From NCBI GenBank assembly GCA_016932895.1, contig JAFGCA010000675.1:1-5726 (forward strand): a DNA stretch of 5,726 nucleotides. The letters are read 5' to 3'. Below, one piece after another: positions 634 through 5,675 of the stretch; position 1 is the stretch's first letter; each line of letters starts with the position of its first letter. The position numbers and the translations under genes are program-made. This DNA is from Sedimentisphaerales bacterium. GTDB taxonomy: Bacteria > Planctomycetota > Phycisphaerae > Sedimentisphaerales > SG8-4. The notes under the pieces are model-generated. The model was given only the letters and a program-made list of their open reading frames with translations. It searched no databases and was not told the origin of the DNA.

Positions 634-1164
634 TCAGCACGCGGTCTCCCGCTGCAACTGTTTGGCAAACACGTCGTAACTTTCCTGTCCGAACAGGCAG
701 AAGACGACGCGTTCCAGGCCCGTCTGCTCGTCCACATAGTCGGCGGCCGTCTTGAGCATGATCTCGGCGCAGCGCTGGATCGGGAAGCCGAAGATGCCCG
801 TACTGATGGCCGGAAACGCGATGCTCTTGAGTCCGTTTTCGTCGGCCACCTTCAGGGAATTCAGAGTGGCGTTTCGGAGTTTCTCGTCCTCGTCTCCCTC
901 GCCCATCCGGGGCCCGACCGCGTGGATGACGTGGCGGGCCTTGAGGTTGCCGCCGGTGGTAATGACGGCGCCGCCGACGAAGGTGCCGCCGATCTGGTTG
1001 CACTCGGCCTGGATGGCCGGGCCTCCTTTGCGGCGGATCGCGCCGGCCACGCCGCCGCCCAACTGCAACTGCGCGTTGGCGGCGTTGACAATGGCGTCCG
1101 TCGCCATCTCGGTGATGTCTCCCTCCACCAGTTCGAGAATGCTCTTGCCGATTCTGGCTTCCAT
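634..1164 (-). CDS. Macro-domain protein (ADP-ribose binding/hydrolysing)
   Basis: This 176-residue protein is essentially one stand-alone macro domain, the usual length for the MacroD/YmdB-like class. Visible motifs are VEGDIT (13-18), the NAAN loop (28-31), the glycine-rich GGGVAGAI segment (37-44) that contacts the distal ribose and phosphates, HAVGP near 83-87, and the second phosphate loop AISTGIFGFP near 117-126. Family members bind ADP-ribose and many remove it from proteins, or deacetylate O-acetyl-ADP-ribose; NAAN plus GGGV fits the hydrolytic class. No signal peptide or membrane segment is seen, so it should be cytoplasmic. The start at 1164 is chosen because AAGGAGG lies 8 nt upstream and the domain begins directly after it. 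The frame is open upstream to 1836, but that stretch is repeat array and not protein. No DarT-like or other ADP-ribosyltransferase gene is visible nearby, so the substrate is unknown. Confidence 0.9.
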   Translation of the reverse strand: MEARIGKSILELVEGDITEMATDAIVNAANAQLQLGGGVAGAIRRKGGPAIQAECNQIGGTFVGGAVITTGGNLKARHVIHAVGPRMGEGDEDEKLRNATLNSLKVADENGLKSIAFPAISTGIFGFPIQRCAEIMLKTAADYVDEQTGLERVVFCLFGQESYDVFAKQLQRETAC

Positions 1165-1179: not shown

Positions 1180-1318
1180 ACTCCCTGTCCAAACCGGGAC
1201 CTGCGGCCCGCATCCTGCTGCCGGCCGATACGCCAACGGTCGCAGGCAGCCGCCCGTCAGCGTAACCGCCGTAAGGCCCGAGCACAAGCCCCAGGCGATT
1301 TCCCCACACCCCAGCCCC

Positions 1319-1747
1319 AATTGGGTTCGTTTCGCACAGCCCGCTCCAACAACAGGGTGGCAGCGGGAAGCGTCAGCTTGCCGATGGACAACGCAGGGGG
1401 CACCGTGGTTCCCATGCCGCCAGACCGTGAATTGGCTTCGTTTGACGCGCCGCCCTCGTTTGCGGGCCAAGAACCGGGCCAGATTGGCTTCGTTTGCCAC
1501 GTGCCCCCCGTTTCCGGGCGAAAAGCCCGGCCAATTGGGTTCGTTTCGCACGTTCGCCCTCGAAGATTGGGTTCGTTTGGCGCGACCCGCCCTGACAACC
1601 GGGGAGGCAGCGCCAAGTGGGAACTTGCCGATGGCTGAACTGCTGATGGGCGGAGTCTGCCGACGATTCGCCCGCCAAATTGGCTTCGTTTCTGGCACAA
1701 CACACGTTGCGGGGCCCAAAACGAGGCCAATTGGCTTCGTTTGGCGC
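1319..1747. repeat. Degenerate 51-bp / 112-bp repeat array, 7 cores
   Basis: Seven copies of a core close to AATTGGSTTCGTTTSGCAC (plus-strand sense) begin at 1319, 1430, 1482, 1533, 1565, 1678 and 1729. Spacings are 111, 52, 51, 32, 113 and 51 bp. The 51-52 bp units (1430, 1482, 1678) also share a CGTTTGCGGGC-like middle and an AARAACCSGGCCA-like end just before the next core. The two long units share a tail: GGCAGCG at 1359 and 1606, and CTTGCCGATGG at 1377 and 1624, at nearly equal offsets from their cores. Spacings of 52, 32 and 113 break any frame, and all three minus frames yield peptides of the type RNEPNW, KRTQL and ETKPIW, so the array is noncoding. The spacers are neither uniform nor unique and the cores are imperfect, so this is not CRISPR. 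Its function is unknown. Confidence 0.85.
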
Positions 1748-1888
1748 AATTGCCCGGCCTGACCGGCCTCAATCTTCCGCGAGACGGCCGCCTGACAAAG
1801 GGCGGCATTTGAAATGTTCGGCTCGCGATTTCCCATCTTGCCACTACCCGCTCGCGACTACGATTCCGCGTCCTTTAGTTACATGATT

Positions 1889-1917
1889 ATTGTACCACTT
1901 CCCAGGCCGCCCGTCAA
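1889..1917 (-). promoter_or_regulatory. Sigma70-type promoter pointing through the repeat array
   Basis: The minus strand carries TTGACG (1917-1912), a 17-bp spacer and TACAAT (1894-1889), with 5 of 6 matches in each box. A short run of T lies just upstream of the -35 box. Transcription would start near 1882 and cross the repeat array. The next recognisable gene is the macro-domain gene about 720 nt downstream, and no better promoter is seen between. It may therefore serve the macro gene through a long leader, or make a separate RNA. Confidence 0.55.
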
Positions 1918-2097
1918 GGAAAAATCCTCCGCAATCTCCCCCGTCGGCCAACGATGTCACTCACGAGGGAGCCACCGACCTCCCGAAGTCTCGCCATCTT
2001 CTCCGAGCTTTGTGTCGGTCCAGAGTCCGGTGTACCGGTGGGGGCGTAGAGAAGGCGGGAGATATATGGCCCACCATCTTCCTCAGAATTGGTGCGA

Positions 2098-2143: not shown

Positions 2144-2641
2144 TCAAGAGTTCCATCCGGTACTGAAATCCAAGGCGCGTACGAATTGAAAGGTATTGCA
2201 GCATCTTACCCCAAGATCGTTGCATACGTCGGGCAGGTGGCGATTCGCTCGGCGTCGACTGGGCTTGGATACCTCCGTGGTCACCACATGCCTGTTTCCG
2301 CTATCATTAAGAGCGTATGCAATGAGAAATGGGTCACGGCCTATTTTCTCTACCTCATCGTCAGTAAGATCAGCCGCATATCCGTGGTCGATCACATACG
2401 AGACCAGCGAAACATCGACCTCCTCTTGAAGAAGAAGACCGGTCTTAATCGAATCTCGCCTTGCCCAATTCGCGAGAGCGTCACTTCCGTCGGCGATCTC
2501 TTCGTACACTTCAAGCGGGGTTTTCGCATTGCCGTTGCGCCCAGCATTCTCGAGCCATTCCCAAAACTCGGGTACCCGTTCTATCGGGTAGTAGTCCCGA
2601 TTGGCGTCGATGAGAACATTTGCGTCCAGCAAGTAAAGCAA
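2144..2641 (-). CDS. PIN-like domain protein of the DUF4411 family, putative RNase
   Basis: This 165-residue protein fits the DUF4411 branch of the PIN superfamily. The first strand is LYLLDANVLID, with acidic D6 and a conserved N8. An acidic cluster follows at E44/E47/E48 in PLEVYEEIADG, then GRDPFLIAYA with D103, and VVTTEVSKPS (119-128), where the fourth metal-site position usually lies. The tail ends with PDVCNDLGVRCCNTF, which is typical of the family. PIN proteins use these acidic residues to hold Mg or Mn and cut RNA; many are toxins. The start must be TTG at 2641, since the preceding codon is an in-frame TAA and any later start removes the first strand. AGGGA near the upstream stop codon is a weak ribosome site. 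The gene begins 9 nt after the XRE-ImmA gene, so the two are surely co-transcribed. The family call is strong; the toxin role is inferred. Confidence 0.88.
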   Translation of the reverse strand: MLYLLDANVLIDANRDYYPIERVPEFWEWLENAGRNGNAKTPLEVYEEIADGSDALANWARRDSIKTGLLLQEEVDVSLVSYVIDHGYAADLTDDEVEKIGRDPFLIAYALNDSGNRHVVTTEVSKPSRRRANRHLPDVCNDLGVRCCNTFQFVRALDFSTGWNS

Positions 2642-2650
2642 TTAGAGTCC

Positions 2651-3847
2651 CTACAAGGATCGACCCGCGTCAATAAGGGTCTGCACGTTTTTACCCTTGA
2701 CGCCGAGCACCTTTCCCGCTTTGGATGTTGTTATCGCTCCCGCGCGCATCATAGCACCGACAAGCTCAAGCAATGCTTTGCCTATACGATGCCGGCGAAC
2801 CGGATAATAAGTGGGTCCTGTTCTTCTCTGGTCACGTACCCTTCTTCGTTCCTCATTCCGTCGCGCGATCCACATTTGGCGGAAATTCTCACTCAGGTGT
2901 TTCCAGTTCTCAAGGTCGATGGTGCCCGTGCGATATAGCTTGTACGCAACCATGGAAGCGCTGACGTTTCGACTTCTCGCAAATTCAGCAATTCGGTTTT
3001 GAGCCGCTTCAAAACTTGTCGTTTCGTCGACGTCGAGTTGCGCAAGCTCTGACCGTGGCAAGAGGAACTCACTTGCCACATCGTCGCAGAACTTCTCCAG
3101 TGAGATCCCGACTCTCCAGCCGCTAACACCAGTCTGCCCAAGCCAAATATGAACAAGTTCGTGAAGCAACGTGAATGACCACGCTGAACGAGCGTCCTGG
3201 TCGTTGATTATCACAAATGGTGCTATGTCGTCTGCCAGAGCGAATCCGCGAAATGTCTGCAAGTCAATCGTCGTGTGATAGCTTCCAAGATTCCCAATAA
3301 GCAGAACGAATACTCCTGCCGCCTCAACTCGATCGCGCAAGAATGTGAACGCTTCGGAAGAAGAAGTCTTGGCACGAAACTCGGCTCTTTCAAATCGAAT
3401 CGTTTCCTGAATGGACGATAGAAGTGCCGGAACTCCCTGAGTCCTTCTTGCCGAGCCAACAAATAGTAGCGGTTTGGTGTCCTCTTCCTCCTCAAGCATT
3501 GCCCGGACCATGCTCTGCCGTGCCTTCACGTTGCGGATAAGAGCGTCCAACAATGCCTCATCGGTATCAGAGTAGTCCGTTGGAAGCGTTCGGAAGTCCT
3601 GGCCACGGTCACCTTTTCGAGGAGCCGCTGTCATGTAGAACGTCAACAAGGGTCTACGATAGTGCTTTGCCATCCTAACCAGAAGAGAACGGGTTGGCTC
3701 TTTGTCACCAGTCTCCAAGGCAATAAGTCTCTCAATAGCCGAGACGCCTCGTGCCTCACGCAGGGTGAGTTTCCTGGTTGCTTCTTCCAAGCTGAGGCCG
3801 GCTGTCTCTCTAGCCCAACGGATTATTTCAGGGTTTACTTTCGGCAT
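2651..3847 (-). CDS. XRE HTH regulator fused to ImmA/IrrE Zn-peptidase
   Basis: The 398-residue protein has an N-terminal XRE-type helix-turn-helix (about 5-70, with ERLIALETGDKEPTRSLL at its core). A linker (80-160) includes FRTLP and an acidic EEEED patch (119-123). The Peptidase_M78 domain (about 165-310) shows H229-E-L-V-H233 as zinc ligands and catalytic Glu, with E260 in ASEFLLP as the likely third ligand. A conserved C-terminal region ends in a helix-turn-helix-like ITTSKAGKVLGVKGKNVQTLI (372-392). Relatives such as ImmA and IrrE cleave a repressor when the cell is stressed; here both functions sit in one chain (COG2856 with XRE). ATG 3847 is chosen because it gives the standard XRE N-terminus, with GGATGG just upstream; the frame stays open to 3961 but that extension looks non-protein. 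It is first gene of an operon with the PIN-like gene and may repress, restrain or activate it. Confidence 0.92.
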   Translation of the reverse strand: MPKVNPEIIRWARETAGLSLEEATRKLTLREARGVSAIERLIALETGDKEPTRSLLVRMAKHYRRPLLTFYMTAAPRKGDRGQDFRTLPTDYSDTDEALLDALIRNVKARQSMVRAMLEEEEDTKPLLFVGSARRTQGVPALLSSIQETIRFERAEFRAKTSSSEAFTFLRDRVEAAGVFVLLIGNLGSYHTTIDLQTFRGFALADDIAPFVIINDQDARSAWSFTLLHELVHIWLGQTGVSGWRVGISLEKFCDDVASEFLLPRSELAQLDVDETTSFEAAQNRIAEFARSRNVSASMVAYKLYRTGTIDLENWKHLSENFRQMWIARRNEERRRVRDQRRTGPTYYPVRRHRIGKALLELVGAMMRAGAITTSKAGKVLGVKGKNVQTLIDAGRSL

Positions 3848-3984
3848 TTTCCATCCGGGTACATGCTGTCCCTGTTGGCCAGCGTGACCAATCTGATGGC
3901 GGGCGCAATGCCATATTCGGAAGGTCGTACATGGCCTCTCATTTCGCCAGCACCGCTTCACATTTCAGATAGGATCCTCACGAC

Positions 3985-5638: not shown

Positions 5639-5675
5639 CGGGACCCCGGACGGATTTGTCACGTCCGGGGTCCCG
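5639..5675. terminator. 14-bp perfect GC hairpin, likely terminator
   Basis: CGGGACCCCGGACG (5639-5652) pairs perfectly with CGTCCGGGGTCCCG (5662-5675) around a 9-nt loop, gatttgtca. It begins 15 nt after the stop codon of the gene entering from the right, so it probably ends that transcript. No T-run follows on either side, so it may need a factor, or it may be a dispersed palindromic element. The 250 nt between it and the membrane gene hold only a short CGCGT-GAA-ACGCG stem-loop (5494-5506) and no gene that I can support. Confidence 0.55.

What the first reader, a model, noticed from the sequence alone, without database searches (positions are those of the whole stretch)
1319..1747. Higher-order degenerate repeat array, seven cores
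Seven copies of a 19-bp core (ATTGGSTTCGTTT in common) recur with spacings of 111, 52, 51, 32, 113 and 51 bp. There is a 51-bp unit and a longer 111-113 bp unit with its own shared tail, so the array looks built by duplicating a composite block. Spacings break frame and all three minus frames give similar NEPN/KRTQ/TKPI peptides, so selection or duplication acted on DNA or RNA, not protein. I recall such peptides from planctomycete gene predictions, but I know of no described function. Possible roles are protein-binding arrays, a structured RNA or a mobile repeat family.
Basis: partly seen in the sequence, partly recalled or inferred. Interest (0 to 1): 0.7.

Follow-up and report, generated by a model that had tools for sequence, protein, structure and literature searches.

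The report
Scattered promoter-linked, helix-spaced DNA repeats
The repeat array is one copy of an apparently undescribed non-coding element that lies between genes in tens to hundreds of copies in some planctomycete genomes, often has a promoter of its own beside it, and in most of the genomes tested spaces its 13-base core by whole turns of the DNA helix, which hints at a DNA-binding protein.

Summary
Seven direct copies of ATTGGSTTCGTTT lie at 1320-1742 with the stated spacings, and a composite block is duplicated (73% identity). It belongs to a dispersed family: eight array-bearing genomes hold 13-539 exact cores each (reversed control 0-2); 15 of 248 class genomes hold ten or more. (1) Core spacings, and the 10/11-bp minirepeats of some genomes, keep a register near 10.5 bp, a DNA-level signal: strong in 4 of 6 genomes with enough data, moderate in one, absent in one (FK_Sedi_B). 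(2) A sigma70-like promoter reads into the array: 24 of 29 G001 arrays at 125-274 bp (controls 2, 0, 1); in G502, 17 of 21 copies of a conserved promoter have cores downstream, none upstream. In the other genomes the excess is weak (19 of 79 against 9, 10 and 17), clearer for stricter promoters (15 against 3, 0 and 5). The window has one at 1917-1889 (minus). (3) In G502 the stretch between is a mosaic of shared modules. Examined sites are not conserved between relatives; gene orientation hardly matters. RNA structure is not supported. Best reading: a new variant of interspersed mosaic element ending in a phased protein-binding array. Function, binding protein and means of spread are unproven.

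The parts
1320..1332 (+). core 1 (ATTGGGTTCGTTT)
1431..1443 (+). core 2
1483..1495 (+). core 3
1534..1546 (+). core 4
1566..1578 (+). core 5
1679..1691 (+). core 6
1730..1742 (+). core 7, the first one reached from the promoter
1719..1731 (-). inverted core with one mismatch; forms a near-perfect palindrome with core 7
1320..1482 (+). composite block, copy A (111 + 52 bp)
   Evidence: 73% identical to copy B
1566..1729 (+). composite block, copy B (113 + 51 bp)
1670..1747 (+). 51-bp unit with flanks, matching the 52-bp unit of genome G001 (L145)
   Evidence: 76% identity over 79 alignment positions, E 1e-7
1743..1882 (-). inferred leader between promoter and first core (start site inferred from the promoter, not observed)
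   Evidence: position only
1889..1917 (-). sigma70-like promoter TTGACG-17-TACAAT reading into the array
   Evidence: 2 of 200 shuffles have a match to this pattern, which was chosen after seeing the site; 10 of 12 consensus bases

Best explanation
The array is the downstream end of a short non-coding transcription unit (about 0.3-0.6 kb) copied to many intergenic sites. Order in the transcribed direction (window minus strand): a sigma70-like promoter; a leader of roughly 100-430 nt, which in G502 is built of shuffled modules shared between copies; then one to several units bounded by direct copies of the core (RNA sense AAACRAASCCAAT). SHOWN by sequence analysis: the dispersal; promoter coupling, strong in G001 and G502 and weak elsewhere; the mosaic leader in G502; ends of similarity at the outer cores in G001; the near-10.5-bp register in most genomes tested; no core at the orthologous sites examined. 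INFERRED: that the promoter fires; that a DNA-binding protein occupies the cores side by side on one face of the helix (as ribbon-helix-helix proteins do on 10-11-bp direct repeats, recalled); that this complex stops the unit's own transcript before the neighbouring gene and/or marks the element for copying; and that the element persists mainly as a mobile-like or recombination-driven repeat rather than as a regulator of the gene beside it.
For: Dispersed copies: 13-539 cores in 8 genomes, control 0-2. Neighbouring cores: 376 of 379 in one orientation. Promoter: 41 of 116 arrays (40 G001 stretches, loci and window together) have one on the right reading inwards, against 8, 15 and 3 for the other side/strand combinations. 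G001: 24 of 29 unmasked arrays at 125-274 bp, controls 2, 0, 1; at 10 of 12 bases 15 against 0, 0, 0. Other genomes at 10 of 12: 15 of 79 against 3, 0, 5. G502: 17 of 21 promoter copies have cores downstream at 152-438 bp, 0 of 21 upstream within 500 bp. Leader blocks shared by 85 of 136 pairs, 114 of 151 at shifted positions. Register: 129 distinct genome-spacing pairs, R = 0.43 at 10.5 bp; minirepeats of 10 (102) and 11 (171) bp alternate in 85 of 120 steps and sum mostly to 21, 32, 42-43, 53. Similarity ends: 408 of 900 G001 alignments that overlap arrays end 0-20 nt after the last core.
Against: No transcript or protein data. FK_Sedi_B, with the most cores counted (539), shows no register (58 spacings, R = 0.05); the best overall period was 10.2, little different from 10.5. 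Register could be a relic of tandem duplication of 21-bp pairs without any protein. Outside G001 and G502 promoter coupling is weak: at 9 of 12 bases 19 of 79 arrays at 125-274 bp against 9, 10 and 17 in the controls. The G502 promoter motif is lineage-specific: 0 hits in G531, 2 in G537. No transposase or binding protein was identified; Y1 transposases do not stand out in array-rich genomes.
Confidence: 0.47

Rival explanations
1. A purely selfish or neutral intergenic repeat, like REPINs or BIMEs, whose promoter and phased cores are passengers or relics of tandem duplication, with no host role and no dedicated binding protein.
For: Patchy copy number among relatives (0-133 exact cores in 31 relatives of G001); no core at the orthologous sites examined; mosaic make-up; no register in one genome; weak promoter coupling outside G001 and G502.
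Against: Register and core are kept in several genomes while spacers diverge; a conserved promoter accompanies G502 copies.
Confidence: 0.3
2. A trans-acting RNA: the transcript offers several A/C-rich single-stranded cores that titrate an RNA-binding protein, as multi-site sponge RNAs do.
For: Promoter direction; several like motifs per transcript; in best-hairpin stems of 37 units G-U pairs outnumber C-A mismatches 39 to 17.
Against: A register near 10.5 bp is a property of double-stranded DNA; no folding or covariation signal; tens to hundreds of dispersed copies are unusual for a sponge (recalled); the G/C variable base in the core argues against one antisense target.
Confidence: 0.13
3. 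A 5' leader that regulates the gene beside it (in the window the Macro-domain gene at 634-1164, minus).
For: In the window the promoter, array and Macro gene lie in one direction, and no other promoter-like site is listed between array and gene.
Against: None of the 8 Macro orthologues examined (73-83% identity) has an exact core within 900 bp upstream. Across 164 clusters (rough gene caller) the left gene is co-directional in 98 and convergent in 46 of 144 called, near symmetric with the right side, 60 and 42 of 102. Arrays lie 14-95 bp behind stop codons in L121, L127, L130, L143 and L150.
Confidence: 0.06
4. A coding repeat: the NEPN/KRTQ/TKPI peptides are part of a real protein.
For: Long frames are open in the array; the core holds no stop codon in any of six frames (by reading).
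Against: Three of six spacings break the frame; the three minus frames give similar peptides; a protein search with the 195-aa frame found 1088 word-sharing candidates, none scoring E <= 0.001.
Confidence: 0.02

Closest known systems
REP, REPIN and BIME elements (PMC3733652, passages read; PMC3116915, abstract and outline read)
   Same: Short, intergenic, many copies, clustered and mosaic; REP families are reported in planctomycetes too.
   Different: No GTAG or CGTC tag in the G001 unit consensus, direct instead of inverted pairs, a promoter at one end, helix-phased cores, no visible link to Y1 transposases.
Promoter-carrying intergenic repeats such as Correia/NEMIS and ERIC (recalled; no paper read)
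   Same: About 100 bp and more, intergenic, promoter activity or transcription.
   Different: Those end in inverted repeats; here the ends are direct repeats and the promoter lies at the far 5' end of a longer unit.
ParR-parC and other ribbon-helix-helix direct-repeat operators, plasmid iterons (recalled)
   Same: 10-11-bp direct repeats read on one face of the helix next to a promoter.
   Different: Tens to hundreds of chromosomal copies instead of one centromere or origin. Neighbouring genes were not searched for such a protein; the six window proteins scanned show none.
CRISPR arrays
   Same: Direct repeats with spacers, promoter at one end.
   Different: 13-bp cores, unequal spacers some of which are related to each other; no Cas family among the six window proteins scanned.

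Membership tests
REP/REPIN | GTAG or CGTC tetranucleotide at one end of a palindrome | tested here: not met
   Unit consensus of 30 G001 copies carries neither (by reading); definition from PMC3733652 passages.
REP/REPIN | Doublets in inverted orientation | tested here: not met
   376 of 379 neighbouring cores have the same orientation.
REP/REPIN | Dissemination by a REP-associated Y1 transposase (RAYT) | tested here: inconclusive
   PF01797 is in 219 of 248 class genomes; the 15 array-rich ones hold 1-10 copies, within the range of the rest. Position next to arrays was not examined.
BIME-like interspersed mosaic element | Intergenic units assembled from exchangeable modules | tested here: met
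   G502: shared leader blocks, 114 of 151 at shifted positions; several unit kinds in one array.
MITE / insertion-sequence derivative | Terminal inverted repeats | tested here: not met
   Similarity ends at direct copies of the core.
MITE / insertion-sequence derivative | Target-site duplication | not tested
   No clean empty site found; the interval examined differs by a 3.1-kb stretch.
Structured non-coding RNA family | Covarying helices | tested here: not met
   RNAalifold none; hairpin no better than column shuffles, though better than slid versions; z near 0; no array match in Rfam for the window and 16 loci.
Helix-phased protein-binding array | Spacing in whole turns of B-DNA | tested here: met
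   R = 0.43 at 10.5 bp over 129 genome-spacing pairs; of six genomes with at least 8 spacings four have R 0.92-0.98, one 0.52, one 0.05; minirepeat register.
Helix-phased protein-binding array | A protein that binds the cores | not testable with these tools
   Needs pull-down or ChIP.

The most novel reading that the evidence does not exclude
A new class of bacterial interspersed element: a self-contained non-coding transcription unit with a conserved promoter, a leader reshuffled from a pool of modules, and a terminal array of direct repeats held in register with the DNA helix, bound by an unknown cooperative protein that both ends the transcript and enables copying. It would be a bacterial analogue of a short interspersed element, found in Phycisphaerae and possibly Acidobacteriota and Armatimonadota.
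Probability: 0.25. Interest if true: 0.85.

Novelty: new variant of a known kind. Interest (0 to 1): 0.67.

Why it matters
Dispersed intergenic repeats are an old puzzle, and the best-known families are palindromes tied to RAYT transposases. This family has direct repeats, a promoter at one end, shuffled leaders and a helical register, so it offers a testable link between repeat spread, transcription and a DNA-binding protein. It may also account for many NEPN/KTNPI-type hypothetical proteins in planctomycete annotation (recalled, not counted here).

Tried and rejected
Leader of the Macro gene: disfavoured, 0 of 8 orthologues. Structured RNA: no support. A G-U over C-A excess (39 against 17) was seen but may be base composition. 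Replication-strand orientation in G001: best two-arc split of 52 clusters p = 0.05-0.06, and GC skew from 40 sampled 20-kb stretches is too weak to place origin and terminus; left open. RAYT link: Y1 transposases are nearly everywhere. Phage or plasmid carriage: the two-core pattern has 0 hits in viral contigs; window 1180-1930 matches no plasmid. Protein homologues of the array frame: none scored. Conserved position: upstream of the L145 left gene in 4 relatives, and the L219 interval, spanned in 4 relatives and only partly in a fifth: no core; a second L219 site holding one single core also has none in those five. Papers: six searches on the family and one on Correia repeats. Six core strings matched 8 papers; I saw only the listing, the subjects look unrelated, and passages were not read. 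After the self-check I recounted promoter hits per array and lowered confidence from 0.50 to 0.47 because the excess outside G001 and G502 is weak at the looser threshold.

Full report
OBSERVATION. The window holds seven exact direct copies of ATTGGSTTCGTTT at 1320-1742, spaced 111, 52, 51, 32, 113 and 51 bp, above chance. The composite duplication is real: 1320-1482 and 1566-1729 are 73% identical, and the spacers alone score above all 200 shuffles. An inverted core with one mismatch at 1719-1731 makes a palindrome with the core at 1730.

DISPERSAL. The window's own genome is not held. Of these, 105 carry a planctomycete label, 43 of them Phycisphaerae, Phycisphaerales or Sedimentisphaerales. 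Eight whole genomes picked from them hold 13-539 exact cores against 0-2 for the reversed pattern; 13 more, picked mainly for odd labels, hold 2-120. In wider samples, each including its array-bearing centre, ten or more cores were found in 3 of 294 phylum genomes, 15 of 248 class genomes and 14 of 31 relatives of G001. One of the three phylum genomes, G216, has 12 scattered single copies, some at contig ends, and may be unrelated. Genomes labelled Bryobacterales (11, 19 and 34 cores), Acidobacteria gp13 (37) and Armatimonadetes (37) hold them too, while three labelled Bradyrhizobium, Rhizobiales and Binataceae hold only 2-3. These are MAGs, so mis-binning is possible. No two-core match was found in viral contigs, and no plasmid similar to window 1180-1930.

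ANATOMY. Neighbouring cores share orientation in 376 of 379 cases. Two common units are a 52-bp unit in G001 and a 90-bp unit with a conserved CGTAA-N18-TTAYG stretch in many genomes. The window's 51-bp unit matches the G001 unit (76% over 79 positions, E 1e-7). In several sediment genomes the spacers are runs of 10- and 11-bp minirepeats of the core.

HELICAL REGISTER. Over 129 distinct genome-spacing pairs of 30-75 bp, spacings cluster at multiples of about 10.5 bp (R = 0.43, n R-squared 23; best period 10.2). Six genomes have at least 8 spacings: four reach R of 0.92-0.98, JAPLMX gives 0.52, and FK_Sedi_B gives 0.05 over 58 spacings, a clear exception. The scan that chose the loci required spacings of 35-65 bp, which limits the range but not the phase. 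Spacers without minirepeats still show it (147 spacings, R about 0.40, but G001's 52-bp units weigh heavily there). Minirepeats of 10 bp (102) and 11 bp (171) alternate in 85 of 120 steps, where about 56 are expected from their frequencies; sums of two to five fall mostly on 21, 32, 42-43 and 53, with 0.53-0.61 of the variance of independent draws. Duplication of 21-bp pairs could also produce this.

PROMOTER. To the right of many arrays lies a sigma70-like promoter reading into them. Among 116 arrays with enough flank, 41 have one (10 of 12 bases, 400 bp) against 8 (right, other strand), 15 and 3 (left); it occurs with convergent left genes (16 of 35) as well as co-directional ones (24 of 79). 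In G001, 24 of 29 unmasked arrays have one at 125-274 bp (9 of 12 bases), controls 2, 0 and 1; at 10 of 12, 15 against 0, 0 and 0. In 79 arrays of other genomes the excess is weak at 9 of 12 (19 against 9, 10 and 17) and clearer at 10 of 12 (15 against 3, 0 and 5). The window has TTGACG-17-TACAAT at 1917-1889, a pattern met in 2 of 200 shuffles but chosen after seeing it. In G502 one promoter sequence recurs: 22 copies with at most 3 mismatches, 16 with none. I fetched 20 stretches covering 21 of them (C37 was left out). Cores lie within 500 bp downstream in 17 of 21 and upstream in none, though two have a minirepeat upstream; of the other four, one has a minirepeat downstream, one is cut by a contig end and two have nothing.

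MOSAIC LEADERS. In those 17 units the promoter (selected by the search) is 88% identical on average, the last unit 76%, the leader 53% and the 100 nt before the promoter 59%. The last two are near what global alignment gives for unrelated AT-rich DNA (my judgement, not tested). Yet 85 of 136 leader pairs share blocks, for example 94% over 107 nt, and 114 of 151 blocks sit at shifted positions. So in G502 a fixed 5' promoter and a fixed 3' array enclose a reshuffled middle. This was not examined in other genomes.

POSITION AND TURNOVER. Of 164 clusters, 157 are intergenic by my rough gene caller (which missed one gene in the window); left genes are co-directional in 98 and convergent in 46, right genes 60 and 42 the matching way. 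Some arrays start 14-95 bp behind stop codons of frames that read like known proteins to my eye. None of 8 Macro orthologues carries an exact core within 900 bp upstream. In G502 an array lies between genes that I read as thi4-like and dnaE; the interval has no core in G537, G531, G438 or G426, and is about 175 and 117 bp in the first two against 3.1 kb. Meanwhile units about 70-90% identical lie elsewhere in those genomes, many with the same ends. In G001, 408 of 900 array-overlapping alignments end within 20 nt after the last core, and a few pairs are similar right through the promoter (L123 with L130; L129, L133 and L152).

RNA STRUCTURE. The 52-bp units hold a palindrome above shuffles (13.4 against 11.6, sd 1.1), but it does not covary, RNAalifold predicts no pairs, and mean folding z is -0.26 over 31 52-bp and -0.17 over 17 90-bp units. 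In the window, unit 1679-1742 folds well (z -4.5) because of the palindrome, and 1483-1546 moderately (z -1.9), but equally on the other strand (-4.1 and -2.4). Rfam finds nothing at the arrays of the window and 16 loci; its only match is a group II intron in L011.

INTERPRETATION. The register is a DNA property, promoter coupling makes the array the end of a transcription unit at least in G001 and G502, and turnover makes it behave like a mobile repeat. I therefore read it as an interspersed mosaic element with a phased protein-binding array. That a protein binds, that it stops the transcript, and how the element is copied are inferences. A neutral repeat remains a strong rival.

LITERATURE. 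REP/REPIN papers (PMC3733652 passages; PMC3116915 abstract and outline) give the nearest kind and its definitions. Searches listed no paper whose title or abstract start describes this family; the held library lacks most subscription journals.

Noticed in passing
window 2144-3961 (-): DUF4411 gene beside a Peptidase_M78 (ImmA/IrrE-like) gene, which looks like a toxin-antitoxin-type pair (Pfam matches; the pairing is my reading).
   Followed up: partly
window 634-1164 (-): Macro-domain gene (PF01661) downstream of the array; matches in 116 of 248 class genomes at E <= 0.001.
   Followed up: yes
window 5639-5675: Perfect 14-bp inverted repeat with a 9-bp loop, possibly a terminator hairpin.
   Followed up: no
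L145 2271-2303 (G001): A second dispersed repeat (TCATCCTGAGGCGGAGCCGAAGGATCT type) recurs at about 79-100% identity in related genomes.
   Followed up: no
L219 6650-7040 (G502): Cluster of CCCCGTTAGAAA-type repeats upstream of the dnaE-like gene and within its first codons.
   Followed up: no
L011 5231-5427: Group II intron (RF02005) about 1.2 kb from an array.
   Followed up: no
L075, L006, L029, L109, L113, L118: Core pairs in MAGs labelled Binataceae, Bradyrhizobium, Rhizobiales, Rhodospirillales and Stellaceae; whole-genome counts were taken only for the first three (2-3 each).
   Followed up: partly
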